From NCBI GenBank assembly GCA_007131745.1, contig SLPX01000193.1, positions 1 through 17,268 on the forward strand: a stretch of DNA of 17,268 nt. The letters run 5' to 3'. Position 1 is the stretch's first letter, and each line of letters opens with the position of its first letter. The position numbers and the translations under genes were made by a program. Under the pieces are notes generated by a model that searched no databases, was not told the DNA's origin, and was given only the letters and a program-made list of their open reading frames with translations. This document shows, in pieces, positions 219-15,391 of this stretch. This DNA comes from Myxococcales bacterium. GTDB taxonomy: Bacteria > Myxococcota > Polyangia > HGW-17 > SLPX01.

Positions 219-421
219 AGAGGAAAAATGTCGACGGGCTGAAAGAGGAGCACTTCGGGATGTGGACAATCGAGCAAGGGGCGGGTAAAACTTGCAGGAG
301 AAGGAAAAGGAAAAAACATACCAGGTGATGGTGATTTTCAAACCTGGTCAATTGTTTGCGTCGAATCCACCGGGACGGTTTTGTAGCAATCCCGGTCGTC
401 CCCATAAGGAAAGAACCGGTC
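199..421 (+). promoter_or_regulatory. Leader of the TIG-repeat gene with two hairpins
   Basis: Two perfect 7-bp inverted repeats lie in tandem upstream of the start codon: ACCAGGT 320-326 with ACCTGGT 342-348 (15-base loop), and ACCGGGA 369-375 with TCCCGGT 390-396 (14-base loop). They end 10 bases before the likely ribosome binding site AGGAAAG (407-413). I found no convincing sigma70 promoter and no known riboswitch class. A role in mRNA stability or translation control is inference only. Confidence 0.35.
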
Positions 422-3049
422 ATGAGAAGAAAAACGAATCTACGAAGTGGAGCAAGTCAGTTCAATTCCCTCGATACACGCAGAATGATCGGTGGCCGTG
501 GCGGCGGGGGCACATTGAAATCTTTGCGGATGCTTTTACCGGCCGCTCTTTTCTTTTTTTGCATGGGGCTGCCCCGAGTGGGCGAAGGGAGGGGTGACAA
601 GGTCTGGACATTGCGCGGTATCAAGCCCGCCGAAGGTCCATGGGGTACAGTTGTGACAATAGAAGGGACAGGGTTTGTAAAGGGGCTGGAGGTTCATTAT
701 GAAGAAAAACCGCTTAAGCCGATTGCAATGGGCCGGAACTTCATCCGGGTGAGGGTCCCGGAAAACTCGGGTAGCGGATGGTTTACAGTAAGTCAGTACG
801 GTCGCAAATTGACAGCGCCCGACCGTTTTGTGGTGATCAATCCGCCCGTGGTCGAGAAACTGGTTCCGGACGAGAGCTTGCCCAACACTTGGATCACGCT
901 CAAGGGAGCGCATCTTGATTCCAAGATGAGATTCTGGATCGGGGGTCAACCCGTCAGACGGCAATTCGTGGAAAGCGGGGAGATCAGGCTTTTTGTTCAT
1001 AAGGGTTTGCAGTCGGGACCGCTTGTTTATGAGTGGAAAGGCCGTAAAAACCGGACAAAGATTGTTTTTTCAATGACCGAATTGCCCCGCATTACGGAAT
1101 TCGGCCCGGAGTCGGGATGGTACGGCGACGAAGTGATCATCAGGGGTGAGAATTTTTGCAGAGATCCGAAAGTGACTCTGGCCTCCAAAGAAGCTGAGGT
1201 AAAAACAAATCCGAAGCGGACGGAACTCAGGGTACTCGTGCCGGAAAACGCGGAATCGGGACGCTTTGAAATCGAGTGTTACACCATGACTTTTACAGTT
1301 CCGGGTGTTTTCAGGGTGGCCCCGACTTTTGCACAGTTGAAAACGGTTGAACCCGGGTCAGGACCTCCTGGAACCTGGCTCAGCATAAAAGGAGAGGGGT
1401 TTACGCCCAAAGACAGGTTTTGGCTCGGAAGGACTCGTTTGAAAACAAAATTCGTGTCCCCCCGGATAGTGAGAGTACAAATCGCCCCCGATGCTGAAAC
1501 AGGAAAATTGTTTTATGAGAGCTTCGGAAAAAGGATTTCATCGAATGATGTAATCATTGTTTACAGGGAGCCGGTGATAGAATCGATTAGTCCGGAAAGC
1601 GGATGGCACGGCGAGGAGTTGGTGATTACAGGAGAAAACTTTTGTCCCGATATGACGGTTGAAATAGGCGGCCGGAGAATTCCCGTTGTAAACAGAAAAG
1701 GCAGCCGGATGGTTACGGTTCAGCTACCCTCGAAAGTAAAGAGCGGAAATATACGGGTGACATGCTTCAAGTGGTCGGTCGATTCCCCCTCTGCTTTCAA
1801 GCTGGAGCCGCCCGGATCATCTATCTTTTCAGTGCGGCCGCTTAAGGGGCCGCCGGGGACCAGGATAGTTGTACGAGGGAAAAGGCTGACTGAAAAAGAT
1901 GGTTTTTATCTCGGGGATGCGCGCCTGGACATGGAATTCAAAGGGCCGTCTGAAGTTGAGCTGGAAGTCCCCCGGGGCGCGGAATCCGGGCCGATCATTC
2001 ACAAGAGTTTCGGCCGTTCCACCCGTACGAAGTTTGTCTTTAATGTTATCATGCCCAGACCCATTGTGGCTTCCTTTACACCAAGGCATGCATGGTTCGG
2101 CGACACGGTGTCGCTCAGGGGCAGAAACATTTGCCCGAACCCCGAGGTTTTCCTGCAAAAAGAAAAGCTCAAAATTCTTGAGGCCGATGACACCGAGGTC
2201 AAAGTCCGCATCCCAAGAGGGGCAAGAACAGGAAATTTTGTCGTGGTTTGTCCCAATCACAAGATAATGGTGAGGCCCGCGCTTGCTCTCAAGCCGCCAT
2301 TCGGCAGGATAGTGTCCATTAATCCGACATCCGGACCATGGGGAACCTGGGTTACAGTGGACGGCGAGAGTTTCAGCAAGGACGATGTCTTTTTTCTTGG
2401 AAGGCAACGGTTGCAAAGCAAATTCATCTCGAGCAACGAGGTCAGTGTTCAGATCCCTGAAAAGGCCGAATCCGGGAGGATGGAGATATTGAGTGCAGGG
2501 AGAAGAAGGGTATCGGACCAGGAGTTCGAGGTTGTCTTTTTGACTCCTGTTGTAAAAAAATTCGCTCCGCGTTCGGGATGGTATGGTGACACCGTGACTT
2601 TGCACGGCAGACATTTCTGCATGAATCCAAGGGTGGTGTTTACAGGTGGAAATGTGACGGCAGAGGTGGAACGACGTATAGGCGACAACACCTTGGAGGT
2701 AACCGTGCCCGAGGGGGCGCAGACCGGCGCTTTGGCCGTGGAATGCCACGGACGCATGTCACGATCTTCGCGATTCTTCGTGCTTTCACCGCCCTTGGCG
2801 CATGTCACAGGAGTAAAACCCGATCGCGGTCCGTGGGAAACCTGGATTTCGGTCAAAGGGCGGAATTTTACCAAAGACACGATTTTTTACCTGGGTGAAA
2901 CCAGGCTTAAAATGTCCTACACAAGCCCGGAAAGCGTCCGTGTGTTCATTCCCCGCGGCGCCAAGTCCGGACTCATCTACGTGGAAAGCTTCGGACAGCG
3001 CCGGGACACAAGTTATACCTACGTGGTCAGAAAACCGCCCAAAGACTGA
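422..3049 (+). CDS. Secreted protein of ten tandem TIG/IPT-type Ig-like domains
   Basis: The product is about 875 residues from ATG 422, which has AGGAAAG eight bases upstream. The frame is open further upstream to a TTG at 356, but ATG 422 has the better site. A basic N-terminus is followed by a hydrophobic stretch (MLLPAALFFFCMG, about residues 37-49), so a Sec signal peptide is likely; FFFC is not a good lipobox. The rest is ten units of roughly 80 residues, each opening with a P..G.W/P-G-T/D..V...G..F pattern and ending in V.IP..A.SG, typical of TIG/IPT domains. After two A-type units, B (SGW-GD...FC) and A (GPWGTW...F-LG..RL) types alternate. The B-unit tryptophans are at residues 233, 395, 558 and 720. 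Each B unit has two cysteines and the A units have none. TIG arrays usually act in surface adhesion or extracellular structure; no catalytic or anchoring domain is visible. The gene lies between repeat copies and has no operon partner. Confidence 0.85.
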   Translation: MRRKTNLRSGASQFNSLDTRRMIGGRGGGGTLKSLRMLLPAALFFFCMGLPRVGEGRGDKVWTLRGIKPAEGPWGTVVTIEGTGFVKGLEVHYEEKPLKPIAMGRNFIRVRVPENSGSGWFTVSQYGRKLTAPDRFVVINPPVVEKLVPDESLPNTWITLKGAHLDSKMRFWIGGQPVRRQFVESGEIRLFVHKGLQSGPLVYEWKGRKNRTKIVFSMTELPRITEFGPESGWYGDEVIIRGENFCRDPKVTLASKEAEVKTNPKRTELRVLVPENAESGRFEIECYTMTFTVPGVFRVAPTFAQLKTVEPGSGPPGTWLSIKGEGFTPKDRFWLGRTRLKTKFVSPRIVRVQIAPDAETGKLFYESFGKRISSNDVIIVYREPVIESISPESGWHGEELVITGENFCPDMTVEIGGRRIPVVNRKGSRMVTVQLPSKVKSGNIRVTCFKWSVDSPSAFKLEPPGSSIFSVRPLKGPPGTRIVVRGKRLTEKDGFYLGDARLDMEFKGPSEVELEVPRGAESGPIIHKSFGRSTRTKFVFNVIMPRPIVASFTPRHAWFGDTVSLRGRNICPNPEVFLQKEKLKILEADDTEVKVRIPRGARTGNFVVVCPNHKIMVRPALALKPPFGRIVSINPTSGPWGTWVTVDGESFSKDDVFFLGRQRLQSKFISSNEVSVQIPEKAESGRMEILSAGRRRVSDQEFEVVFLTPVVKKFAPRSGWYGDTVTLHGRHFCMNPRVVFTGGNVTAEVERRIGDNTLEVTVPEGAQTGALAVECHGRMSRSSRFFVLSPPLAHVTGVKPDRGPWETWISVKGRNFTKDTIFYLGETRLKMSYTSPESVRVFIPRGAKSGLIYVESFGQRRDTSYTYVVRKPPKD

Positions 3050-3149
3050 AACTCCCGCCATTGAGGTTGGAACAAGGCGCTCGGCGATTTGTCCGCTGCC
3101 GTAAACAAACAACCTCGCCCGATCACTAGCTGTCAATAGAACGAGCCGG
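3047..3149 (+). repeat. Repeat Y, copy 2
   Basis: Bases 3047-3125 align without gaps to 3464-3542 over 79 positions with five mismatches by hand count. The rest, to about 3149, resembles the end of copy 1. The repeat starts exactly at the TGA stop codon of the TIG-repeat gene, so the end of that gene coincides with a repeat boundary. Confidence 0.85.
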
Positions 3150-3165
3150 ACAATGCCTGATCTGG

Positions 3166-3283
3166 CGAGGCCATGTTTTCGCAGGCTCCGAAACCGCCGG
3201 ACGTCGCCGTTTGCATTCTGGTGGGAGGCGACATGATGAAGGGCCGGTCGACTATGCGCCCGGCCCGCTGGATTCTAACGCAC
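3166..3283 (+). repeat. Repeat X, right copy
   Basis: This is the inverted partner of bases 1-118, with four mismatches in 118 positions. It carries the same GC stem, GGGCCGG 3241-3247 with CCGGCCC 3260-3266 around a 12-base loop. It lies 16 bases after repeat Y copy 2. Together the two X copies bracket the TIG-repeat gene. No target-site duplication is evident. Confidence 0.85.
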
Positions 3284-3463
3284 GGCTTTTTCCGGAGACC
3301 TGCTTCAACTTTCGGCCTCGGCACAACACCTACGATCATTTGTTGTACATAGGGCGAGGTGCAAAAAAGGCAGATGGACAATAAGCCGACATCTGAGTTG
3401 CGCTTCCGGGTGCAGGGGTGGCAGGAACGGGTGAAGGATGAAGCAACTCGGACGAGCCGCAGA
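3284..3463. other. Intergenic spacer between repeats X and Y
   Basis: About 180 bases without a recognisable gene, promoter or RNA. The open frame on the minus strand over 3133-3543 runs through repeats on both sides and has no family resemblance, so it is not called. If repeat X is longer than the window shows on its left copy, part of this spacer may belong to it. Confidence 0.4.
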
Positions 3464-3542
3464 TGAAACTCCCGCAAGGGAGGTTCTAACAAGGCGCTCG
3501 GCGATTTGTCCGCTGCCGTAAACAAACAACCTCGCCCGATCA
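3464..3542 (+). repeat. Repeat Y, copy 3
   Basis: Seventy-nine bases nearly identical to 3047-3125 (five mismatches). This copy holds a compact hairpin, CTCCC-GCAA-GGGAG, with a GNRA-type loop near its left end; copy 2 has lost the pairing. It ends 13 bases before the stop codon of the minus-strand binding-protein gene, so it could lie in that gene's 3' untranslated region and help end the transcript. The hairpin is short for a Rho-independent terminator. Confidence 0.8.
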
Positions 3543-3555
3543 TTCTGCCTAATAT

Positions 3556-5436
3556 TTAAGAGGAAGCGGTGGGTTCTTTGGCCGCTATCAGCCTCACAAT
3601 CCAGATCAAAAAGATCACAACGAAAATGTTTAAGATCTTGGATGCTACAGAAGAATCCATTGTTACAGCGCCTTCATCCTCATGCACCAAGATCCAGGCC
3701 GAAGGCAAAACCGAATCAGGAGGTTCCGGATTGTTCGTTGCTTCCAATATCTTTTGCATCTTTTCTCGAGGCAGCGGCAGGCCGTGTAACGGGAGCGCCG
3801 CGGCCTGAGCGCCGCCCGCTCTTGAAAAACCCAGGTTTCGGCTCGGAGCGGCCAAAACCACTTGGGATGAATAAGTATCCACCGGAAAATGTTGCGAATC
3901 GTAACTGAAAGCCGGAATTCTGATGTGCCTGAGGTAGGTGAGAACAGCGCGGTTTTGAGGGGTTATCCAACCATCCAAAGAAACGATCTTGAAGTCATAT
4001 TTTTTCATCGCCCGGATAATCTCCGGATCGCCGACCTGAGCGGAGAACAAGACACCATCCAGCTCTTTTTGATCGAGAAGTCGAAAAAGCTTGTTCTTTA
4101 AGTCGAAAACCGCGGGCTTTTTGCCCAACGATTGAAGGATGGCCTCAGCGATTACCGCGCCCCCGCTTCCTTTTTGCGTTGTTCCTATGCGGCCGGTGGA
4201 AGGATCGCGGGAATCTTTTTGCCTGCGGAGAAGATGGACAGCGCGTGTCTCAAGAACTGCAACCGCCTCGATTCTATCATCCCTTGAAGATACAGGTCGT
4301 CCTTTCCTGTCCATGAAAAACCGTTCAGCTCCCAGCACCGCGAGGCGCGCTTTGCCATCGGCCAGATCTTTCGCAGGTTTAAGAGAACGGCTTATTTGCA
4401 AGGTTCGTTCAGGAAAAGCCTGCCGGACTGCATGAATGGCTGATTTAGACGGACCGGAAAGATCGTCTTTGGTATGCACAACAATGTTAAGTTTAGGGCT
4501 TTTGTGAGAAATTCTTTTTCTTCGAGCGGGGAGGTTTTTGTTTTTAAGGAAGCTTTCTGCTGCAAGTTGTGGACTAACACCTCTGACCTGAACCTCGTAA
4601 TTGAGAGCCGTCATTTGTTCAGTGGTAATCAAGGATTCAAGCTTATCAAGCACCGCTTTGATGGAAGGTGTTCTTTCCAATGTATCCATGCGAATCATGA
4701 AAGCGGCTTCATATCTTGGAAAAAAACCTTTTGAATCATCCAGAACTTTCAGCCTGGGGTCGCGAACGGAACCATCCGTGGCATAACCCACAACAACATC
4801 CACCTTGCCCGACAGAAGGGCCTGGTATCTTTTTTCCGGGTCGTCAACCAAGACAGGGTTGGATGTCATCTTGTGCTTGATTCCATATGTTCTCAAAAGG
4901 GAGTGCAGCCCGTCGACAGGTCGCCGCAGGTATTCGGACGGGCAGCCGATTCGCAGGGAGGATTCTGTTTTTGCCAGGTCTGCTATGGATTGGAGGTTTT
5001 CCGCGGCCGCGCGATCCGTGCGGACCAACACCCTGTAACCATTATCAAAGCCCAGGGGCCCAAGCCATTTCAACCCGATTTCCCGGAAAATCGTTCTCAC
5101 TCTTGTGAGTGAATCGGAGTCGTGCTCGATGGATTGGCCCATGAACACGAGGCCGGTTCCCGTGTATTCAAGCATCAGGTCGATTTCTCCATTCCTTATA
5201 GCTCTGTGGCACTCATAAGTGTCATTGCAGTTTATCAATTCTTCAACCGCGTATCCATGGCCTTTCAAAAGTTGCGCTGCAATGGATCCTACGATCTTTT
5301 GTTCATCAAAGTTTTTTACACCGATGCGGATTGCCGGATCCTGTGGATCGCGACATCCCGTGGTGGCAAGAAAGCCGACCAAACCGACCAAGCAAAAACA
5401 TGTAAGAGTTAGGGCTGTTTTATTCGATCTAATCAT
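3556..5436 (-). CDS. Membrane-anchored dual solute-binding protein: OpuAC-type domain fused to TAXI-like domain
   Basis: 626 residues. The N-terminus has a hydrophobic segment and a lipobox-like ATTGC (Cys28); the -3 residue is Thr rather than Leu, so lipidation is likely but not certain. Residues about 36-300 resemble the OpuAC/ProX family of glycine betaine and choline binding proteins: IRIGVKNFDEQKIVGSIAAQ near the start, then GEIDLMLEYTGTG at 83-95 and a second half ending near 300. Residues about 316-590 look like a second periplasmic binding domain of TAXI type (TRAP-associated receptors): RIGTTQKGSGG (416-426), a KELDGVLFSA stretch, and IPAFSYDSQ...VDTYSSQVV near 507-527, comparable to the IPAGTYPGQ region of TAXI proteins. 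A transmembrane helix at about 598-618 is followed by R and K, placing the C-terminus in the cytoplasm. The start overlaps the end of the BCCT gene by eight bases. No ABC ATPase or permease gene is adjacent. The first domain is fairly sure, the second moderately so. Confidence 0.75.
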   Translation of the reverse strand: MIRSNKTALTLTCFCLVGLVGFLATTGCRDPQDPAIRIGVKNFDEQKIVGSIAAQLLKGHGYAVEELINCNDTYECHRAIRNGEIDLMLEYTGTGLVFMGQSIEHDSDSLTRVRTIFREIGLKWLGPLGFDNGYRVLVRTDRAAAENLQSIADLAKTESSLRIGCPSEYLRRPVDGLHSLLRTYGIKHKMTSNPVLVDDPEKRYQALLSGKVDVVVGYATDGSVRDPRLKVLDDSKGFFPRYEAAFMIRMDTLERTPSIKAVLDKLESLITTEQMTALNYEVQVRGVSPQLAAESFLKNKNLPARRKRISHKSPKLNIVVHTKDDLSGPSKSAIHAVRQAFPERTLQISRSLKPAKDLADGKARLAVLGAERFFMDRKGRPVSSRDDRIEAVAVLETRAVHLLRRQKDSRDPSTGRIGTTQKGSGGAVIAEAILQSLGKKPAVFDLKNKLFRLLDQKELDGVLFSAQVGDPEIIRAMKKYDFKIVSLDGWITPQNRAVLTYLRHIRIPAFSYDSQHFPVDTYSSQVVLAAPSRNLGFSRAGGAQAAALPLHGLPLPREKMQKILEATNNPEPPDSVLPSAWILVHEDEGAVTMDSSVASKILNIFVVIFLIWIVRLIAAKEPTASS

Positions 5437-7300
5437 TTTTTGTCTTGCCCCGTGTTTTATCTCGTTTCAACTCGCCACCGCGGATGATTTCTTCGATTTC
5501 ATCGGGATCTGCTAGATCATTGTCGTCATCGTTGCCGTCATCATCGTAGTCCTCGTCGCCGTCCTCGTTGTGGTCCTCGGTGTCGTCCTCGTCTTCGTGG
5601 CCTCTTTTTAGGGTCAAGCCGGGTTTTTTCATTCCTGTTGAGTCGCGATCCGTGGTGGTTTCACCAGTCTTTTTGCCTGAAATCTTTTTGTTCTTCTTGT
5701 TTTCCTTTTGGTTGGATCGCGTTGCCCCGGCGACCTTTTTGCGCTGCTTTCGAAGATCTTCTTTTAATGCCCTCAGAAGAGCGGCGAGTTGCAGCAACAT
5801 GACGAAGACAAAGGGAACAGCTCCGGTGATGACAACCGCCTGCAATGCTTCCACGGATCCTGTAAACATGAGAGCCGCGCCCAGTCCGCCGAGCACGATG
5901 CCCCAGGTGATTTTCTTTTTGAGCGGCGGGTCCGGGTTTCCCTGGGAAGTCAACATCGACAGAACAAAGGTGGCGCTGTCCGCGCTTGTCACCAGGAAGA
6001 CGAATATCAACGAAATGGCTGTGATGCTCAAAAGGCCGGAGAGCGGAAATCCTTCGAACAGGGTAAAAAGAGCCGCGGTCATATCTTCTTTCACAAGGGT
6101 TGAGAGCGCTCCTACTCCGCTCATTTCTTCATGAATGGCAGAGCCTCCGAAAATGGAAAACCACAGAATCGAAAAAAGCGTGGGTACCAGTAAAACACCG
6201 AGAACGAATTCGCGGATTGTTCGGCCTCGACTAATGCGTGCGATGAACACCCCAACGAAAGGCGCCCATGCCATCCAGAATATGAAAAAGGTGAGTGTCC
6301 ATCGGTGAGTCCATTCTCGAAGATTCTGGTATGGGTACATTCTGAACGACATCCCGACAAGGGAAGTGGAATAATCGCCCACTGATGTCAAAAATCCTCC
6401 CAGCAGAGATGTGGTGGGTCCGGCCAGCAATACGAACAGCATCAAGGTTACGGCCAGCCACATGTTGATATTGCTCAATATTCGGATTCCTTTTGACAGG
6501 CCGGTTGTGGCCGATGTCATGTAGGCAACCACGAGGCAAGCCAGAATCACAACCGGGAGCCAAAGTGTATCTCCTGGAATTCCCGAAACAATTTGAACCC
6601 CCGAGGTGATTTGCATCAGCCCCATCCCGATGGAACCCGCGATTCCCAGGGAAACGGCGGCTACGCCTACAATGTCGGCTGTCATCGCGACGGGTGACAC
6701 CCATGAGCCTTGAAAAACCCTTCTTATCGGTTCCCCCGGCAGGTATTTTGCTCCTTTTCTGAATCCGAAGTAGGCCAGAACCAAGCCGGTGATTGCATAA
6801 ATGGCCCAGGCATGAACACCCCAATGAAAACAAGTGATTACCATTGCCTGGCGCGCGGCCGCCGGTGAACCGCTTTGTACTCCTGTCGGCTCGATAAAGT
6901 GCATTACCGGTTCGGAAACCCCCCAGAAAAGAAGGCCCACGCCCATGCCTGCTGCAAACAACATCGCCAACCAGGAGGAAATAGAGAACTCCGGTTTGTC
7001 ATTATCCTTTCCGAGCTTTATTTTTCCGTATGGTCCTAAGGCGAGCCAAATGCAAGCCAGTACGAATGTGGTTGCCGAAAGAAGGAAAAACCAATCCAAC
7101 GAATGCAGCACGGAAGAGATCAACCTATTGGCGGCCTGCCCAAGTTCACCCGGAGACAAAACACCCCAGATCGCTATGGCGATGGACATAACGAGTGAAA
7201 GGATAAAGAGACCGTTTTTTTTCAGGAAAGAGCCTTCCGGGTTCTGGGAATTGTTTTCTCTGGATTGATCCGGTGAAATATTTTTTGTTTCCGCGCTCAT
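5429..7300 (-). CDS. BCCT-family (betaine/choline/carnitine-type) transporter with a long charged C-terminal tail
   Basis: 623 residues and about 12 membrane helices between residues 30 and 510. Family marks include GMGVGLLFWGVSEPVMH (118-134), similar to the GMGIG Na+/betaine motif, HWGVHAWAIYA (159-169), and the signature segment ending in PFVGVFIARISRGRTIREF (347-365). Before it the sequence reads FFIFWMAW: two of the tryptophans expected in the substrate-site helix are kept and others are Phe. The GMGVG motif suggests Na+ coupling; the substrate is inferred as a quaternary ammonium osmolyte. The tail after residue 510 first carries many Lys/Arg, then 24 Asp/Glu in the 40 residues 567-606, then a basic end. 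An in-frame stop lies just upstream of ATG 7300, but no clear Shine-Dalgarno sequence is present. It is translationally coupled to the downstream binding-protein gene. Confidence 0.92.
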   Translation of the reverse strand: MSAETKNISPDQSRENNSQNPEGSFLKKNGLFILSLVMSIAIAIWGVLSPGELGQAANRLISSVLHSLDWFFLLSATTFVLACIWLALGPYGKIKLGKDNDKPEFSISSWLAMLFAAGMGVGLLFWGVSEPVMHFIEPTGVQSGSPAAARQAMVITCFHWGVHAWAIYAITGLVLAYFGFRKGAKYLPGEPIRRVFQGSWVSPVAMTADIVGVAAVSLGIAGSIGMGLMQITSGVQIVSGIPGDTLWLPVVILACLVVAYMTSATTGLSKGIRILSNINMWLAVTLMLFVLLAGPTTSLLGGFLTSVGDYSTSLVGMSFRMYPYQNLREWTHRWTLTFFIFWMAWAPFVGVFIARISRGRTIREFVLGVLLVPTLFSILWFSIFGGSAIHEEMSGVGALSTLVKEDMTAALFTLFEGFPLSGLLSITAISLIFVFLVTSADSATFVLSMLTSQGNPDPPLKKKITWGIVLGGLGAALMFTGSVEALQAVVITGAVPFVFVMLLQLAALLRALKEDLRKQRKKVAGATRSNQKENKKNKKISGKKTGETTTDRDSTGMKKPGLTLKRGHEDEDDTEDHNEDGDEDYDDDGNDDDNDLADPDEIEEIIRGGELKRDKTRGKTKND

Positions 7301-8321: not shown

Positions 8322-8632
8322 GATAGAACCTTTCGATTGGGCCTGCGGCCCTGTTTGCTTCGCTTGGATCCACGAATTCTATATTATATCCTTTTGTTTC
8401 TTTCGCTTCAAGTTCCTTAGCTGCAATGCTATGACATTTTTTTCTGCTAGTAGCTTTTACATTCAATAAGAAGATGTTTCAAGAGGTTAACGGTATTTTT
8501 TTCAACCTTGCCACTGTTTGACAGTATTTGCAGAATCTTGTTGGGTTTTCTTTGAGTTTTTACAAAAAAAATTGTGGATTGAGAAGACATAAGTAGTTTC
8601 GATATCCCTTGCCATCATCGGCAGGATCCTCC
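8322..8632. other. Divergent intergenic region
   Basis: This 311-base, T-rich region separates the minus-strand coiled-coil gene from the plus-strand polysaccharide operon. The minus-strand promoter at 8383-8411 is the only convincing signal. TTGACA occurs on the plus strand at 8518-8523, but no good -10 box follows at 16-18 bases, so the promoter of the plus-strand operon is not assigned. No small gene or RNA is seen. Confidence 0.5.
8383..8411 (-). promoter_or_regulatory. Sigma70-like promoter for the coiled-coil gene
   Basis: On the minus strand TTGAAG (8406-8411) and a perfect TATAAT (8383-8388) are separated by exactly 17 bases. Transcription would begin near 8376, giving a leader of about 55 bases before ATG 8321. 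This is the best promoter match in the window. Confidence 0.65.
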
Positions 8633-9376
8633 ATGATGCATCCCGCAATGGATCCGAAAGGGTTTATAGATTTACATGCTCATGTTCTTCACGGAGTAGA
8701 TGACGGCCCCGGTACCCTGGAAGAAGTGCTCGCCGTTATCGCGGGCATGTCTGAAATGGGTTATGTGGAGATCTGCGCCACCCCTCACCAGAGATCGGAT
8801 CTCTATGCTCCTCATCCTGATCAAATTCAGGTTGCTGCAGCAGAGCTTCGGGCGGGGTTGAATGAGCATGGATCCGCAATGAAAGTTCGTATCGGAGCTG
8901 AAAATTGTTGGGATGATCTGTTTTTTGAACGGGTGCAGCAAGGGAGTATTCCGACTTACGAAGGAACAAAAAGTTTTCTTTTGGAAATGCCGGGATGGTT
9001 CCTTCCGGCCGAGCTGGATCGCCGACTTTTTGATTTGAGGAGATCCGGATACCTGCCTGTGATAGCGCACATAGAACGCTATCAGGGGACACCGGACCTC
9101 CTGGAACGGGCGCGGAGCATCGCTGAATTTGCAGTGATAACATGCAATTTGGAATCTCTTGGAGGATCCGCCGGACGTAGAGCCGCTGGAATAGCCAGAA
9201 AGGCGGTAACGGAAGGGATCGCACAGGTTCTGTGCTCGGATATTCACGGGGAGATCTGGCTGAAGGATTTGGCAAAAGGATTTCGGTGGTTGAGTCGCCG
9301 GGTTTCCGCGGATCGTATTGACCTTCTTCTCAAGACGAACCCGATGCGGGTCCTGGCCGGAGAAATGCCTGAATGA
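8633..9376 (+). CDS. CpsB/YwqE-type PHP-domain phosphoesterase (protein-tyrosine phosphatase family)
   Basis: 247 residues from ATG 8633, preceded by AGGA six bases upstream; an open TTG at 8609 has no such site. It shows the PHP metal-site motifs of the CpsB/CapC/YwqE family in order: DLHAH with H20 and DD (13-24), ATPH (49-52), GAEN with E90, LLEMP (116-120), AHIERY (145-150) and CSDIHG (201-206, where the family usually has SDAH). CNLESLGG (171-178) fits the conserved strand before the last metal site. Length matches the family. These enzymes use metal ions to dephosphorylate the tyrosine-rich tail of polysaccharide co-polymerase kinases (Wzc/CpsD type) and so control capsule or exopolysaccharide length. 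No such kinase is in the window. It is the first gene of a four-gene plus-strand cluster. Confidence 0.85.
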   Translation: MMHPAMDPKGFIDLHAHVLHGVDDGPGTLEEVLAVIAGMSEMGYVEICATPHQRSDLYAPHPDQIQVAAAELRAGLNEHGSAMKVRIGAENCWDDLFFERVQQGSIPTYEGTKSFLLEMPGWFLPAELDRRLFDLRRSGYLPVIAHIERYQGTPDLLERARSIAEFAVITCNLESLGGSAGRRAAGIARKAVTEGIAQVLCSDIHGEIWLKDLAKGFRWLSRRVSADRIDLLLKTNPMRVLAGEMPE

Positions 9377-9439
9377 TTCGCTGATTAGCATTGAGACAAA
9401 AAAATTCCCCTTCAATGGGTGACAGGAGAGGTTGATAAG

Positions 9440-10741
9440 ATGGATTTTTTCGGAAAAGTCGAACGGAAAGAAGCGCGGGTGGCCGTGGTGGGGGCCGGGT
9501 ACGTGGGACTGCCCCTTGCCGTTGAAATATGCAGGGCCGGCATGCATGTTGTGGCGCTGGACAAGAAACCCGAAAGGGTCCAAAGCCTCCTGGAAGGAAT
9601 TTCCTACATCAAGGATGTTTCGAGCTCGGAATTGCAGGATTTTTTGAAAAAAGGTCTTTTCGATGCGACCACGGAGACCGGTGTGTTGAGTGAAGTGGAT
9701 GCCGTAATCATCTGCGTCCCGACTCCTTTGCGAAAGACAAAGGATCCCGATGTATCGTTCATAATGGATGCAGCCGGGGAAGTAGCCGCGCACCTTGGAA
9801 AAGAGCAACTCGTAGTCCTGGAATCCACCACCTACCCCGGCTTTACGAGGGAAATGCTTCAGCCGCATTTGGAAGGTTCAGACCGCAAAGCGGGCAAGGA
9901 TTTTTTCCTGGGGTTTTCTCCTGAAAGGGTGGATCCGGGCAATCAGAGTTTCGGCACCCGCAACACGCCCAAAGTAATCGGCGGGGTGACCGAGGAGTGC
10001 CTGATGCGGGTGAAAGCATTGTACTCTGCGTTTATCGATAGGCTTGTCCCGGTTTCCTCGACGGATGCCGCTGAGATGGTGAAACTCCTGGAAAATACTT
10101 TTCGAGCGGTAAACATAGGAATGGTAAATGAAGTCGCCATCATGTGCCACAAACTGGGTTTGGATACATGGGAGGTTATTGAAGCCGCGGCCACCAAACC
10201 ATTCGGATTCATGCCGTTTTATCCGGGTCCCGGTCTTGGAGGACACTGCATTCCGGTTGATCCCCATTACCTGAGTTGGAAGCTCAAGACCTTGGAGTAC
10301 AACGCCCGGTTCATAGAGCTTGCAGGAGAGGTGAATTCCCACATGCCGCTGGTGGTTGTTGAAAGGGTCGTGGATGTGTTGAACGGACGAAAAAAGGCGG
10401 TAAACGGATCCCGCATTCTGGTGTTGGGAGTGGCTTACAAGAAAAACATAGATGATGTCAGGGAATCTCCGGCGTTGGATATAATCAACGCTCTCAGCGG
10501 AAAGGGCGCGGATGTGTTTTTCCACGATCCGTTCGTAGAAAGCTTGAAAACTCTGCATGGCGGTGAGATGCGGTCGGTTGCGCCGGATGATCTTTCGTCT
10601 TATGACTGTGCGGTTATCGTGACCGATCATGACGAGGTAGATTATAAAAGGGTGTTAAACGAAGTTCCGGCTGTTGTAGACACCCGGAACGCGACGGCGT
10701 CATACAGGGCCGGCGCATCGGCCGAGGTGGTCACTATTTGA
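9440..10741 (+). CDS. wbpA: UDP-N-acetyl-D-glucosamine 6-dehydrogenase (WbpA type)
   Basis: 433 residues from ATG 9440, with AGGAGAGG eight bases upstream; an in-frame GTG at 9419 is less likely. The N-terminal Rossmann fold has VAVVGAGYVGLPL (NAD-binding Gly at 18, 20 and 23) and ICVPTPL; ESTTYPG follows. The middle has PVSSTDAAEMVKLLEN with the catalytic-type Lys215, and YPGPGLGGHCIPVDPHY with the nucleophilic Cys270. The C-terminal domain has LGVAYKKNIDDVRESPA and a VTDHD stretch. The ATKPFGFMPFYPGPGLGGHC stretch closely follows WbpA, which oxidises UDP-GlcNAc to UDP-GlcNAcA for O-antigen sugars, rather than UDP-glucose dehydrogenase. A UDP-ManNAc dehydrogenase is the nearest alternative. 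It lies 63 bases after the PHP gene. Confidence 0.88.
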   Translation: MDFFGKVERKEARVAVVGAGYVGLPLAVEICRAGMHVVALDKKPERVQSLLEGISYIKDVSSSELQDFLKKGLFDATTETGVLSEVDAVIICVPTPLRKTKDPDVSFIMDAAGEVAAHLGKEQLVVLESTTYPGFTREMLQPHLEGSDRKAGKDFFLGFSPERVDPGNQSFGTRNTPKVIGGVTEECLMRVKALYSAFIDRLVPVSSTDAAEMVKLLENTFRAVNIGMVNEVAIMCHKLGLDTWEVIEAAATKPFGFMPFYPGPGLGGHCIPVDPHYLSWKLKTLEYNARFIELAGEVNSHMPLVVVERVVDVLNGRKKAVNGSRILVLGVAYKKNIDDVRESPALDIINALSGKGADVFFHDPFVESLKTLHGGEMRSVAPDDLSSYDCAVIVTDHDEVDYKRVLNEVPAVVDTRNATASYRAGASAEVVTI

Positions 10742-10822
10742 CAGGACAATCCAATGGTTTCCCCTGAATGGCAAAACCCCGGGAAAACCGCGGGAAACCG
10801 GTTTTCCGCGCACCGGCCCTCC

Positions 10823-10829
10823 GGAGGAG
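10823..10829 (+). promoter_or_regulatory. Shine-Dalgarno site supporting a TTG start
   Basis: GGAGGAG lies four bases before an in-frame TTG at 10834. The in-frame ATG at 10768 has no purine-rich site in front of it. The site therefore favours TTG 10834 as the start of the flippase-like gene. Confidence 0.6.
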
Positions 10830-10833
10830 CGCT

Positions 10834-11958
10834 TTGAAGAAGATTTTGTTCAGGGCGTTTCTGTCTCTTTCGGTGGGAGGACTTTTTGCTTACCTGGCAT
10901 TCCGGGATTTGGACTGGGAAGGCCTGGTGAAGTCTCTCAGGGGCGCTGATTACCGTTGGCTCATACCCTATTTCGGAACATTGGTTGGGGTGCACGTGGT
11001 GCGCGCTTGGCGATGGAAGTACCTTCTGCAACCCGTTGCTCCCGAGATGCCTTCAAACTGGCGGATAATAAGCGTTTCATGGGTGGGATTCACCGCCATA
11101 TTGGCCTTGCCCCTGAGGTTGGGGGAAGTTGTTCGTCCATACCTGATTGCGGATCCGAGGAAAAAGGATTCTCGCTGCGACGATGATGCTACCGATGGAA
11201 ACCGTGAATCAGACGATCGCGGCAGGCTCAGAATGAGCGCGGCGCTGGGAACCATAGCGGTTGAAAGAGTGGTCGATGGATTGATAGTATCGATTTTTCT
11301 TTTCACGGTGTTTTTTATCCTGGACTCACGGGGGCAGGGGACGAGTTGGATGATGCCCTTGGGATGGACCGCTCTGGGTGTATTCGGGGGTTCGATGTTG
11401 TTTTTGGCAGCGGCCGTTTTGAACCCAGCATGGTCGGTTTCCGTGTTCATGAAATTGAGTTTGTTGGATTTTCTGGCCGGACGTTTCGGAGGCAAAGCCG
11501 AGTGGTTGAGAAACAAGGTTGCTTACGGTCTCGAAGGGGTGATACAGGGGTTCTTGGCCTTGAAAAGTCCTCTCCTGCTAATCAAGTTCGTCATTGCATC
11601 CATGGTTTACTGGGGATTTAACGGGTTGGGTTTCTGGATTCTCTCCAGAGCGTTCCACCTGGGTTTGGACATCACGGGCGGGTATGCTGTTTGCGGGCTG
11701 GTAGTAATAGGCATTACTTTGCCTACCGCTCCGGGCCTTGTGGGCAATTTTCATGAATTTGCCAGGCTCGGCCTGCTCTTATACCTTCCGACCGCGGTGG
11801 TGAGAGCTGACGGCATGGCGTATGTGGTTGCCGTGCACATGCTCCAGGTGACATGGTATGTCGGCATGGGGGTTTTGATGTTGGTCACCGGACAGGTTTC
11901 TTTCGGCAAGGTGGTGGAGGCAGCGAAAGAGCATATGGACACAATGATTGATGATTAG
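10834..11958 (+). CDS. Flippase-like integral membrane protein (LPG_synthase_TM / UPF0104 family)
   Basis: 374 residues if TTG 10834 is the start; ATG 10768 would add 22 mostly basic residues. About seven or eight membrane helices are visible. Family marks are RAWRWKYLL (58-65), ALPLRLGEVVRPYL (91-104), GTIAVERVVDGL (139-150) and LPTAPGLVGNFHEF near the C-terminal part, matching the lysylphosphatidylglycerol synthase transmembrane family. That family includes lipid or lipid-linked sugar flippases and many proteins of unknown substrate. Between the second and third motifs is an unusual hydrophilic insert of about 25 residues rich in Asp, Arg and Lys (107-133). The position after a nucleotide-sugar dehydrogenase suggests a role with lipid-linked envelope glycans, by inference only. 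It lies 92 bases after the wbpA-type gene if the TTG is used. Confidence 0.82.
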   Translation: MKKILFRAFLSLSVGGLFAYLAFRDLDWEGLVKSLRGADYRWLIPYFGTLVGVHVVRAWRWKYLLQPVAPEMPSNWRIISVSWVGFTAILALPLRLGEVVRPYLIADPRKKDSRCDDDATDGNRESDDRGRLRMSAALGTIAVERVVDGLIVSIFLFTVFFILDSRGQGTSWMMPLGWTALGVFGGSMLFLAAAVLNPAWSVSVFMKLSLLDFLAGRFGGKAEWLRNKVAYGLEGVIQGFLALKSPLLLIKFVIASMVYWGFNGLGFWILSRAFHLGLDITGGYAVCGLVVIGITLPTAPGLVGNFHEFARLGLLLYLPTAVVRADGMAYVVAVHMLQVTWYVGMGVLMLVTGQVSFGKVVEAAKEHMDTMIDD

Positions 11959-13441: not shown

Positions 13442-15391
13442 TCAGTTTTTGTTGCGCAGAAACTTGTCCAGGATTGCGTATTGGCTCAAGAGGTCTGCAT
13501 TTTGTACATTGCACCGGGCGTTTTCCACGAGTTCCCACAACCGATGGTAAAGAATCACGAGATTGCCCTGGAGAGCTTCCACTTCCTTGTTCAAAACGGC
13601 CAACTCGTTTTTCCAAGCGGCTAATTGTTTTTTTTCTTCGATTTGCAGTTCATGTTGCCGCCGCTCCAGGGCTTGCACCCGGGATGAGATTTCGTCGATG
13701 TTTTTTTCAAGACCAGGGTCGTCGGCATACTGGTCCATGATAAAAGCCTTTTCGAGGTTGAGTTCTATGACGGCTCTTCTCAACCTTCCAAGCCTCTCCC
13801 TGTAAGAGTCTTCCATCTCACGGAAACGGTCTTCTTCAAGAGATTTTTGCGTGCCGGACGCCAGGAGTCGCTCCTCTTCATCGAAGATTCCGATCAGCAC
13901 GTGGATGAGTTCCGGAGGCGCAAGGCGCATTTCCCTGAGTTGGTTCCCGATATCTTGCAGCATTCGCAGGGTGTATTCGTCATGCCACCATTCCGATGGT
14001 TCCCTGGGCGAAAAACCGATTTTGCCCATGGCGTATTTTAACGGCGCCTGAGAGGAGGTTTCGGCTGAAAGAGGAGTGGATTCATCTTCCGGTCCCGCGT
14101 CCATGCGGGTGGGTTGGCTTTCGAAATCATCGGTCGATCCTCCGGCGTGGTCTCCCCATATTGTGTCGGCTTCCCAGATGGACATGTCCTTGGACCTTCC
14201 GCGCCATGCCTTTCCGGGAACAAGAACCGAGTCACGTTGGGGTTTTCTTTTACTTCGAGCCGGGGGCGATTCAAGAGCGGAACCGGCTTGGATTCCTTCA
14301 ACGCCATCGGTTCCCCGCGTTTCAACGAACCGCTGCACGGTCTTCCTGCGTTCTTCTTCGGAATGGAGCGAATCTGTAAAAGGTTCGGGTAACATGGAAT
14401 CGGGTTTTCGAAAGACGGGCGTGCCGGGTTCCAACCCCGACAGTCGGGAAAATGTATGTGATTCGGTCCAGTCATCTTCCGGTCCGCCCAGATCGAGGAT
14501 GCCGACACGGGAAAAGTTCTTTGCGTATATCTTTTCGCAAAGCCGGAGATCCGACAGAACAGCATCAAAGCTCTGATATCGTTTTTGAGGTTTTTTTTCC
14601 AAACACTGCATTACCACGGCCTCGAGTTCGGGAAAAATCTCTTCATTGTCCGTTCTGGCGGAAGGGGGTTCTACGCGCTTGTTTTTGTGCGCTTCCAACA
14701 GCATGTAAATGTTGTTCACATCGAATGGAGGTTTTCCGGTTAGGCATTCATAGAGAACCGTACCAAAGGAGTATATGTCGGTTCGATGATCAATCGGAAG
14801 CCCCTGTGTCTGTTCGGGTGACATGTTGTGAGGGGTGCCGAACACCGCGCCGTCCGCGGTCAGTTTTGAACTGGATTCACCAAGTAGTTTTGCAAGTCCG
14901 AAATCTATGAGCTTGACATGGTTGTTGTCTCCGGGGGTCGTCACCAGCATGATGTTGTCCGGTTTCAGATCCCTGTGAATCACCCCGTTTTCGTGGGCGT
15001 ATCGCAAACCGTCGGCTACCTGCAGGAAAATTTTCAATGTACGTCCCACCTCCATTGCGCCGTGTGCGTCCAGAAGCTCTTGGAGGCTTGTTCCTTCCAG
15101 GTATTCCATGACAAGGTAGAGCCTGCCGTCGTCAAGCTGTCCGAAGTCGGTCAGGTACACGATGTTCCTGTGTTGAATACGGCCGGCGGCTATTGCTTCC
15201 CGTCTGAATCTCGCTACCACCTCGGGATTTCCTGCGAGATCCCTTTTCAAGACCTTCACAGCGAACGGGCTGCAAAGCTCCCTGTGTTCAGCCATGTATA
15301 CTTCTCCGATGCCTCCCGATCCGAGAAGCTTGATTACTTGAAAACGGCCACCGATCGTGCTTCCCATAATGCTTTGTTTTCTGCCGGGCAA
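13442..15391 (-). CDS. Eukaryotic-type Ser/Thr protein kinase with C-terminal coiled coil
   Basis: 649 residues from TTG 15391, which has GGGGG five bases upstream; ATG 15367 is a weaker alternative start. The kinase domain (about 16-285) is complete: glycine loop GSGGIGEV (24-31), Lys46, Glu65, HRDLKPDN (139-146), DFG (163-165) and FGTPHNMSPEQ (184-194, an APE-motif variant). It is an RD kinase with Ser173-175 and Thr178 in the activation segment, so autophosphorylation is plausible. Residues about 290-465 form a low-complexity, charged linker. The last 180 residues are helical, with a coiled coil at about 540-620. No transmembrane helix or extracellular sensor domain is visible, so it probably acts in the cytoplasm. 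It lies 25 bases after the beta-propeller gene on the same strand and is convergent with the UPF0489 gene. Confidence 0.93.
   Translation of the reverse strand: MPGRKQSIMGSTIGGRFQVIKLLGSGGIGEVYMAEHRELCSPFAVKVLKRDLAGNPEVVARFRREAIAAGRIQHRNIVYLTDFGQLDDGRLYLVMEYLEGTSLQELLDAHGAMEVGRTLKIFLQVADGLRYAHENGVIHRDLKPDNIMLVTTPGDNNHVKLIDFGLAKLLGESSSKLTADGAVFGTPHNMSPEQTQGLPIDHRTDIYSFGTVLYECLTGKPPFDVNNIYMLLEAHKNKRVEPPSARTDNEEIFPELEAVVMQCLEKKPQKRYQSFDAVLSDLRLCEKIYAKNFSRVGILDLGGPEDDWTESHTFSRLSGLEPGTPVFRKPDSMLPEPFTDSLHSEEERRKTVQRFVETRGTDGVEGIQAGSALESPPARSKRKPQRDSVLVPGKAWRGRSKDMSIWEADTIWGDHAGGSTDDFESQPTRMDAGPEDESTPLSAETSSQAPLKYAMGKIGFSPREPSEWWHDEYTLRMLQDIGNQLREMRLAPPELIHVLIGIFDEEERLLASGTQKSLEEDRFREMEDSYRERLGRLRRAVIELNLEKAFIMDQYADDPGLEKNIDEISSRVQALERRQHELQIEEKKQLAAWKNELAVLNKEVEALQGNLVILYHRLWELVENARCNVQNADLLSQYAILDKFLRNKN

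What the first reader, a model, noticed from the sequence alone, without database searches (positions are those of the whole stretch)
5429..5436. A BCCT transporter translationally coupled to a solute-binding lipoprotein
The BCCT stop and the receptor start share ATGATTAG, and no ABC permease or ATPase is nearby. BCCT carriers are known as stand-alone secondary transporters that bind substrate in the membrane. A dedicated OpuAC-type receptor encoded in the same transcript would be a receptor-assisted BCCT system, similar in idea to TRAP transporters. The overlap is seen directly; cooperation is inference.
Basis: partly seen in the sequence, partly recalled or inferred. Interest (0 to 1): 0.8.

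Follow-up and report, generated by a model that had tools for sequence, protein, structure and literature searches.

The report
Binding protein paired with betaine symporter
A sodium-driven betaine importer of a kind thought to work alone is encoded, with overlapping genes, beside a membrane-tethered double binding protein, and the pair recurs in distant bacteria, which points to a new sort of receptor-assisted importer.

Summary
In detail: a BCCT gene (5429-7300, minus strand) ends in ATGATTAG, where the receptor gene (3556-5436) starts. The receptor is more than an OpuAC lipoprotein: lipid anchor, quaternary-amine binding domain with an intact cage, a second domain with the TAXI (TRAP) receptor fold, and a C-terminal membrane helix. 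The pair is conserved. Of 377 genomes of one phylum, 8 gave a full-length receptor; 7 have a BCCT directly upstream, the eighth only the tail of one before its contig ends. Martelella plasmids (Alphaproteobacteria) carry the pair too. All 10 junctions with an intact upstream end overlap by 4 or 8 bases; one broken copy (Paracoccus) does not. Paired BCCTs fall in one clade, with four unpaired ones. None of 70 other BCCT stretches holds the receptor. Two draft carrier genomes show no other OpuAC gene and no OpuB-type permease. The closest precedent is TAXI-GltS (2025), whose authors raise the possibility that SBP-assisted secondary transport needs an elevator; BCCTs have the LeuT fold. Functional linkage is well supported; delivery of substrate by the receptor is inferred, without biochemistry, and a regulatory role is the main rival.

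The parts
5429..7300 (-). BCCT-family transporter gene, 623 aa
   Evidence: PF02028 566.8 bits; Foldseek match of its model to TmaT and BetP
5432..5752 (-). charged C-terminal tail of the BCCT (about residues 517-623; Lys-rich, then Asp/Glu-rich), mostly low-confidence in the model
5429..5436 (-). overlap ATGATTAG: BCCT stop codon and receptor start codon
3556..5436 (-). tandem-domain receptor gene, 626 aa
5353..5436 (-). signal peptide up to lipoprotein Cys28
   Evidence: Cys in 32 of 33 rows, one gap; 77 of 78 in the wider family, one gap
4540..5334 (-). domain 1, OpuBC/OpuCC-type quaternary-amine binding domain (residues 35-299)
3673..4509 (-). domain 2, TAXI-fold binding domain (residues 310-588)
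3580..3657 (-). C-terminal membrane helix (residues 594-619 in the model), then a short tail with Lys

Best explanation
The two genes encode one receptor-assisted secondary importer for glycine betaine or a related quaternary-amine osmolyte. Shown by sequence and models: the receptor has a lipoprotein Cys, a betaine-type binding domain with a conserved cage, a TAXI-fold second domain in which the glutamate-site residues that could be aligned are replaced, and a C-terminal hydrophobic helix; the BCCT keeps the aromatic box and the Na2 site. Inferred: the receptor stays in the inner membrane next to the transporter, domain 1 captures scarce substrate, domain 2 docks or spaces the receptor, and the closed receptor hands substrate to the outward-open BCCT, which carries it in with Na+. 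The gene overlap keeps the two in step.
For: Receptor and BCCT lie in the same order on the same strand at 10 loci where both can be read (window; L063-L067, L069, L071; L157; L156 with a broken BCCT); at an eleventh, L001, only the charged tail of the upstream ORF is on the contig. Overlap at 10 of 10 intact junctions. None of 70 other BCCT stretches (L073-L142) has the receptor. The paired BCCTs tested fall in one set supported at 100. Pairwise identities of receptor and BCCT over 8 pairs, two with a fragment, correlate at r 0.86, 0 of 5000 permutations (shared ancestry contributes). 9 of 32 further receptors have exactly the contig length of one of 120 listed BCCTs, control 0 of 24. Cage residues in 33 rows: Y91 33, T94 33, R172 33, Y242 33, Y134 32, K41 31, N132 31, Y218 29. 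C-terminal hydrophobic segment in 77 of 78 at 1.6 or more. BCCT cage and Na2 positions kept. No other OpuAC and only 28-bit permease matches in G001 and G058.
Against: No binding, docking or transport data. Four BCCTs of the clade (L075, L076, L077, L137) have no receptor beside them and none was found elsewhere in their genomes, so these carriers presumably work alone. Known BCCTs bind substrate themselves and have no known receptor (recalled). The pair is rare: 8 of 377 genomes, a lower bound since at most 3 candidates per genome were scored. In the Martelella group of receptors the cage is looser: position 218 is Tyr in 6 of 46 and N132 kept in 8 of 46. In Paracoccus aminovorans the receptor is intact while the BCCT is broken.
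Confidence: 0.62

Rival explanations
1. The receptor is a regulatory or sensory subunit. It binds betaine outside and switches the BCCT on or off (for example limits uptake or efflux) without handing substrate over.
For: Explains the conserved coupling, the membrane anchors at both ends, and why sister BCCTs exist without it. BCCTs such as BetP are regulated (recalled). In the second domain the alignable glutamate-site residues are replaced, so it could be a signalling or docking module.
Against: Domain 1 of the window's group keeps the ligand residues of importer receptors; after the C-terminal helix only a short tail remains in most members, so no cytoplasmic signalling domain is visible.
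Confidence: 0.25
2. The receptor is an ordinary ABC substrate-binding protein, or a spare one, that happens to share an operon with a BCCT.
For: Domain 1 is closest to ABC-type receptors. Six of eight carrier genomes hold an OpuAC-permease fusion elsewhere, and G213 also has a separate OpuAC gene.
Against: In those six the best permease match lies in the same open frame as its own OpuAC domain. G001 and G058, both drafts, show neither a second OpuAC nor an OpuB-type permease. ABC receptors with a second TAXI domain and a C-terminal helix are not known to me (recalled).
Confidence: 0.08
3. The receptor acts with a different, unlinked membrane protein (TRAP component, sensor kinase, chemoreceptor), and the BCCT is only co-expressed.
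For: The TAXI fold of domain 2.
Against: The BCCT is the one neighbour seen at every locus; the other flanking genes that I identified differ between most loci, except the TIG-repeat gene shared by the window and L001.
Confidence: 0.05

Closest known systems
TAXI-GltS system (BP0403 and GltS, PMC12344293)
   Same: A multi-domain lipoprotein receptor with a TAXI domain, encoded right after and overlapping a Na+ symporter gene, without TRAP membrane genes; proposed SBP-dependent secondary transport.
   Different: Its partner is GltS, modelled as an elevator; here it is a LeuT-fold BCCT. Here the likely substrate domain is an added OpuAC domain, and the receptor has a C-terminal membrane helix.
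TRAP and TTT transporters
   Same: Receptor plus secondary transporter; domain 2 shares the TAXI fold.
   Different: No TRAP or TTT membrane component was seen among the window ORFs scanned; the carrier is a BCCT.
BCCT family (BetP, TmaT, BetT)
   Same: PF02028 domain, aromatic box, Na2 site, model matching BetP and TmaT structures.
   Different: Known members act without an extracytoplasmic receptor (recalled); the window copy has a long charged C-terminal tail.
OpuBC/OpuCC/ProX/EgtU receptors of ABC importers
   Same: Domain 1 fold and cage residues.
   Different: Those serve ABC permeases; here there is a second domain, a C-terminal helix and a BCCT neighbour.

Membership tests
BCCT transporter family | PF02028 domain above the curated cut-off | tested here: met
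   566.8 bits against 27
BCCT transporter family | BetP/TmaT-like (LeuT-type) fold | tested here: met
   Foldseek best row 8zxk_C, TM 0.92 on the target, E 2.5e-29; that BCCTs have the LeuT-like fold: passages of PMC13270143
BCCT transporter family | aromatic box and Na2 site of BetP | tested here: met
   Positions mapped by hand; kept in the 12-row clade except Ile for M119 in L063. BetP roles are recalled, apart from Na1 T246/T250, seen in passages of PMC13270143; these two are V216/I220 in the window, so BetP's Na1 is not kept
Quaternary-amine receptors (subcluster F-III) | aromatic cage and carboxylate ligands | tested here: met
   33 rows; EgtU residues from passages of PMC9732360, mapped by hand; looser in the Martelella group
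Quaternary-amine receptors (subcluster F-III) | binding of betaine, choline or similar | not testable with these tools
   needs purified protein
TAXI TRAP receptors | TAXI fold | tested here: met
TAXI TRAP receptors | TIGR02122 above the curated cut-off | tested here: not met
   28.6 bits against 84.35; 7 of 9 domain-2 sequences match it at E 0.1 or better
TAXI TRAP receptors | glutamate-site residues of VcGluP | tested here: inconclusive
   E125, Y200 and M201 align to other residues (read by hand); Y45 lies outside the alignment, S75 and Q93 were not placed
TRAP transporter | DctQM-type membrane component with the receptor | tested here: not met
   None among ten window ORFs scanned with Pfam
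ABC importer | permease and ATPase genes with the receptor | tested here: not met
   None among the ten window ORFs; no permease match or ATPase motif in the fetched flanks of nine pair loci, while the control locus L072 had both
SBP-dependent secondary transporters | shown cooperation of receptor and carrier | not testable with these tools
   genomic linkage only

The most novel reading that the evidence does not exclude
This is the first class of binding-protein-dependent importer built on a LeuT-fold carrier. A doubly anchored receptor that joins an ABC-type betaine domain to a TAXI-fold domain serves a BCCT symporter, which would show that an elevator mechanism is not needed for receptor-assisted secondary transport.
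Probability: 0.55. Interest if true: 0.87.

Novelty: new variant of a known kind. Interest (0 to 1): 0.77.

Why it matters
The authors of TAXI-GltS note that the known SBP-dependent secondary transporters work, or look as if they work, as elevators, raise the possibility that this is required, and say that further classes would allow a test (discussion of PMC12344293). A BCCT has the LeuT fold, so this pair is such a test, and Martelella soudanensis NC18 and NC20 are isolated strains. It would also show how a BCCT can be given a receptor for scarce osmolytes. Public annotation labels the Martelella receptor an ABC substrate-binding protein, which hides the pairing.

Tried and rejected
A single overlapping junction as evidence was set aside, since 4-base overlaps are common in operons (recalled); conservation was used instead.

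ABC partner: searched near the pairs and genome-wide in eight genomes. The first permease query was the wrong half of P0034, its OpuAC part; it was replaced, where the piece called PERM3 again proved to be an OpuAC half, and its matches are ignored. The ATPase motif scan covered 14 loci.

Receptor-contact residues in the BCCT: seven columns separate 8 paired from 4 unpaired BCCTs, a number reached by 1 of 495 label splits. The Martelella BCCT shares only 4 of the 7, and some of the states also occur in unpaired outgroups, so this is not used as evidence.

More pairs by order or class searches: none new. BCCT-receptor fusions: none among the 120 relatives listed of 7993, all PF02028 alone; proteins above about 1090 residues were not candidates. 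Betaine catabolism genes beside the pairs: none among ten flanking ORFs of four loci, whose gene calls in GC-rich DNA are rough. Two Deinococcus BCCTs have no receptor gene annotated beside them. No Rfam match; promoter and terminator scans near chance. In one search the labels at positions 396 and 397 were misplaced and are not used. Weak LysR_substrate matches to 2 of 9 domain-2 sequences were taken as distant fold resemblance.

Literature: no paper on a BCCT with a binding protein stood out in searches (open-licence PMC only; judged from listings, six papers opened in part; one search found no paper at all).

A complex of receptor and BCCT could not be modelled here.

Full report
Observation. 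The minus strand carries a BCCT gene at 5429-7300 and a receptor gene at 3556-5436. They share ATGATTAG at 5429-5436. Pfam finds PF02028 over residues 31-515 of the BCCT and OpuAC over residues 35-299 of the receptor; no ABC permease or ATPase appears among the ten window ORFs scanned.

Ligand site. EgtU residues K242, F293, T296, N339, Y341, R379, Y419 and Y443 (passages of PMC9732360) were mapped by hand, from the aligned ranges and the alignments, to K41, Y91, T94, N132, Y134, R172, Y218 and Y242. In 33 rows these are kept in 31, 33, 33, 31, 32, 33, 29 and 33. In a wider set of 78 (32 rows of the window's group, 46 of the Martelella group) Y242 is kept in 78, Y91 in 77, K41 in 76, R172 in 75, Y134 in 72, N132 in 39 and Y218 in 35; in the Martelella group position 218 is mostly Phe or Leu and 132 mostly Ser or Thr. 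The 78 are the full-length rows (120 of 164 listed); left out were the partial P0084, P0118, P0119 and the OpuAC-permease fusions.

The BCCT. It matches TmaT, BetT and BetP by sequence and fold. Mapping BetP numbering by hand, W160, W165, Y168, W342 and W345 fit the aromatic box, and A116, M119, F435, T438 and S439 fit Na2; all are kept in the 12-row clade except Ile for M119 in L063. BetP's Na1 residues T246/T250 are V216/I220, a site that DddT also lacks (passages of PMC13270143). BetP residue roles other than Na1 are recalled.

Conservation of the pair. Of 377 genomes of the phylum of L001's genome (titled Deltaproteobacteria; the phylum is not named), 8 gave a full-length receptor, one split over two contigs; at most 3 candidates per genome were scored, so this is a lower bound. 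The BCCT lies directly upstream on the same strand in L063-L067, L069 and L071; in L001 only the charged tail of the upstream ORF is on the contig, so its identity is inferred. The G344 BCCT lies on two contigs that share 127 identical end bases. In Alphaproteobacteria, the plasmid of Martelella sp. NC18 has a BCCT and receptor overlapping by 4 bases; NC20 carries a near copy, not counted. Paracoccus aminovorans plasmid IV has an intact receptor behind a BCCT split over two frames, without overlap. So 10 of 10 junctions with an intact upstream end overlap, 9 by 4 bases and the window by 8, and 10 of 11 in all. By contrast 0 of 70 other BCCT stretches fetched (L073-L142, flanks up to about 4 kb, some cut by contig ends) hold the receptor. 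I fetched most, not all, of the BCCT places listed, which found BCCTs over the cut-off in 75 of 377 genomes.

Wider set. The first protein search gives 33 full-length members including the window among 57 rows; the second adds 45, with source names such as Martelella and Pusillimonas.

History. In a tree of 78 BCCTs the 8 paired ones (one a fragment) fall in a 12-row set with support 100. With Martelella and two Deinococcus BCCTs added and two long-branched rows dropped, 9 paired and 4 unpaired form a 13-row set, also 100. L001 and Paracoccus are not in these trees. The unpaired L075, L076, L077 and L137 are best read as losses, or the pairing arose more than once; no full-length receptor was found in their genomes. 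Their existence means the carrier can presumably act alone.

ABC partner. PF04069 finds only the receptor itself in G001 and G058, while the other six carriers have further OpuAC genes. An OpuB-type permease query gives 28 bits in G001 and G058, and 86-145 bits in the other six, where the best match lies in the same open frame as an OpuAC domain. G213 also has a separate 392-residue OpuAC frame. The genomes are drafts.

Mechanism. The most likely reading is a receptor-assisted Na+-coupled importer of betaine-like solutes. Capture by domain 1 follows from the conserved site; docking by domain 2 and hand-over are inference. Regulation by the receptor is the chief rival.

Known work. TAXI-GltS (PMC12344293; abstract, passages and sections 14, 17 and 18 read) is the nearest precedent, also described as translationally coupled, with a carrier modelled as an elevator. 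Its authors raise the question whether elevators are needed. A genome paper on Martelella soudanensis (PMC9720073, passages) lists both genes in separate table rows, the receptor as opuC and the BCCT as opuD; the passages shown say nothing of a pair. Nine paper searches on this point listed no report of a BCCT with a binding protein.

Noticed in passing
5432-5752: The window BCCT ends in a tail of about 108 residues, Lys-rich then Asp/Glu-rich; a similar tail is in L001, while six other paired BCCTs end within 14 residues of the domain.
   Followed up: partly
356-3049: A protein of repeated TIG domains is convergent with the receptor gene; an ORF of the same look is convergent with the receptor in L001 at 2469-5144.
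   Followed up: no
L156 6434-7902: Paracoccus aminovorans plasmid IV: the BCCT upstream of an intact receptor is split over two frames.
   Followed up: partly
L073 3261-5174: The genome of L001 has a second BCCT, without a receptor beside it, whose two PF02028 matches lie about 100 codons apart.
   Followed up: no
window 4540-5334 (residues 70 and 76 of the receptor): Two cysteines six residues apart are kept in 32 of 32 rows of the window's receptor group and in none of 46 of the Martelella group; possibly a disulfide.
   Followed up: no
8609-11958: CpsB/CapC-family, nucleotide-sugar dehydrogenase and LPG_synthase_TM genes in a row on the plus strand.
   Followed up: no
13442-15391: A protein kinase-domain protein with a long C-terminal part.
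   Followed up: no
L069 13474-14649: In G311 a gene with a weak-to-moderate M50-peptidase match precedes and overlaps the BCCT by 4 bases, a possible three-gene operon.
   Followed up: no
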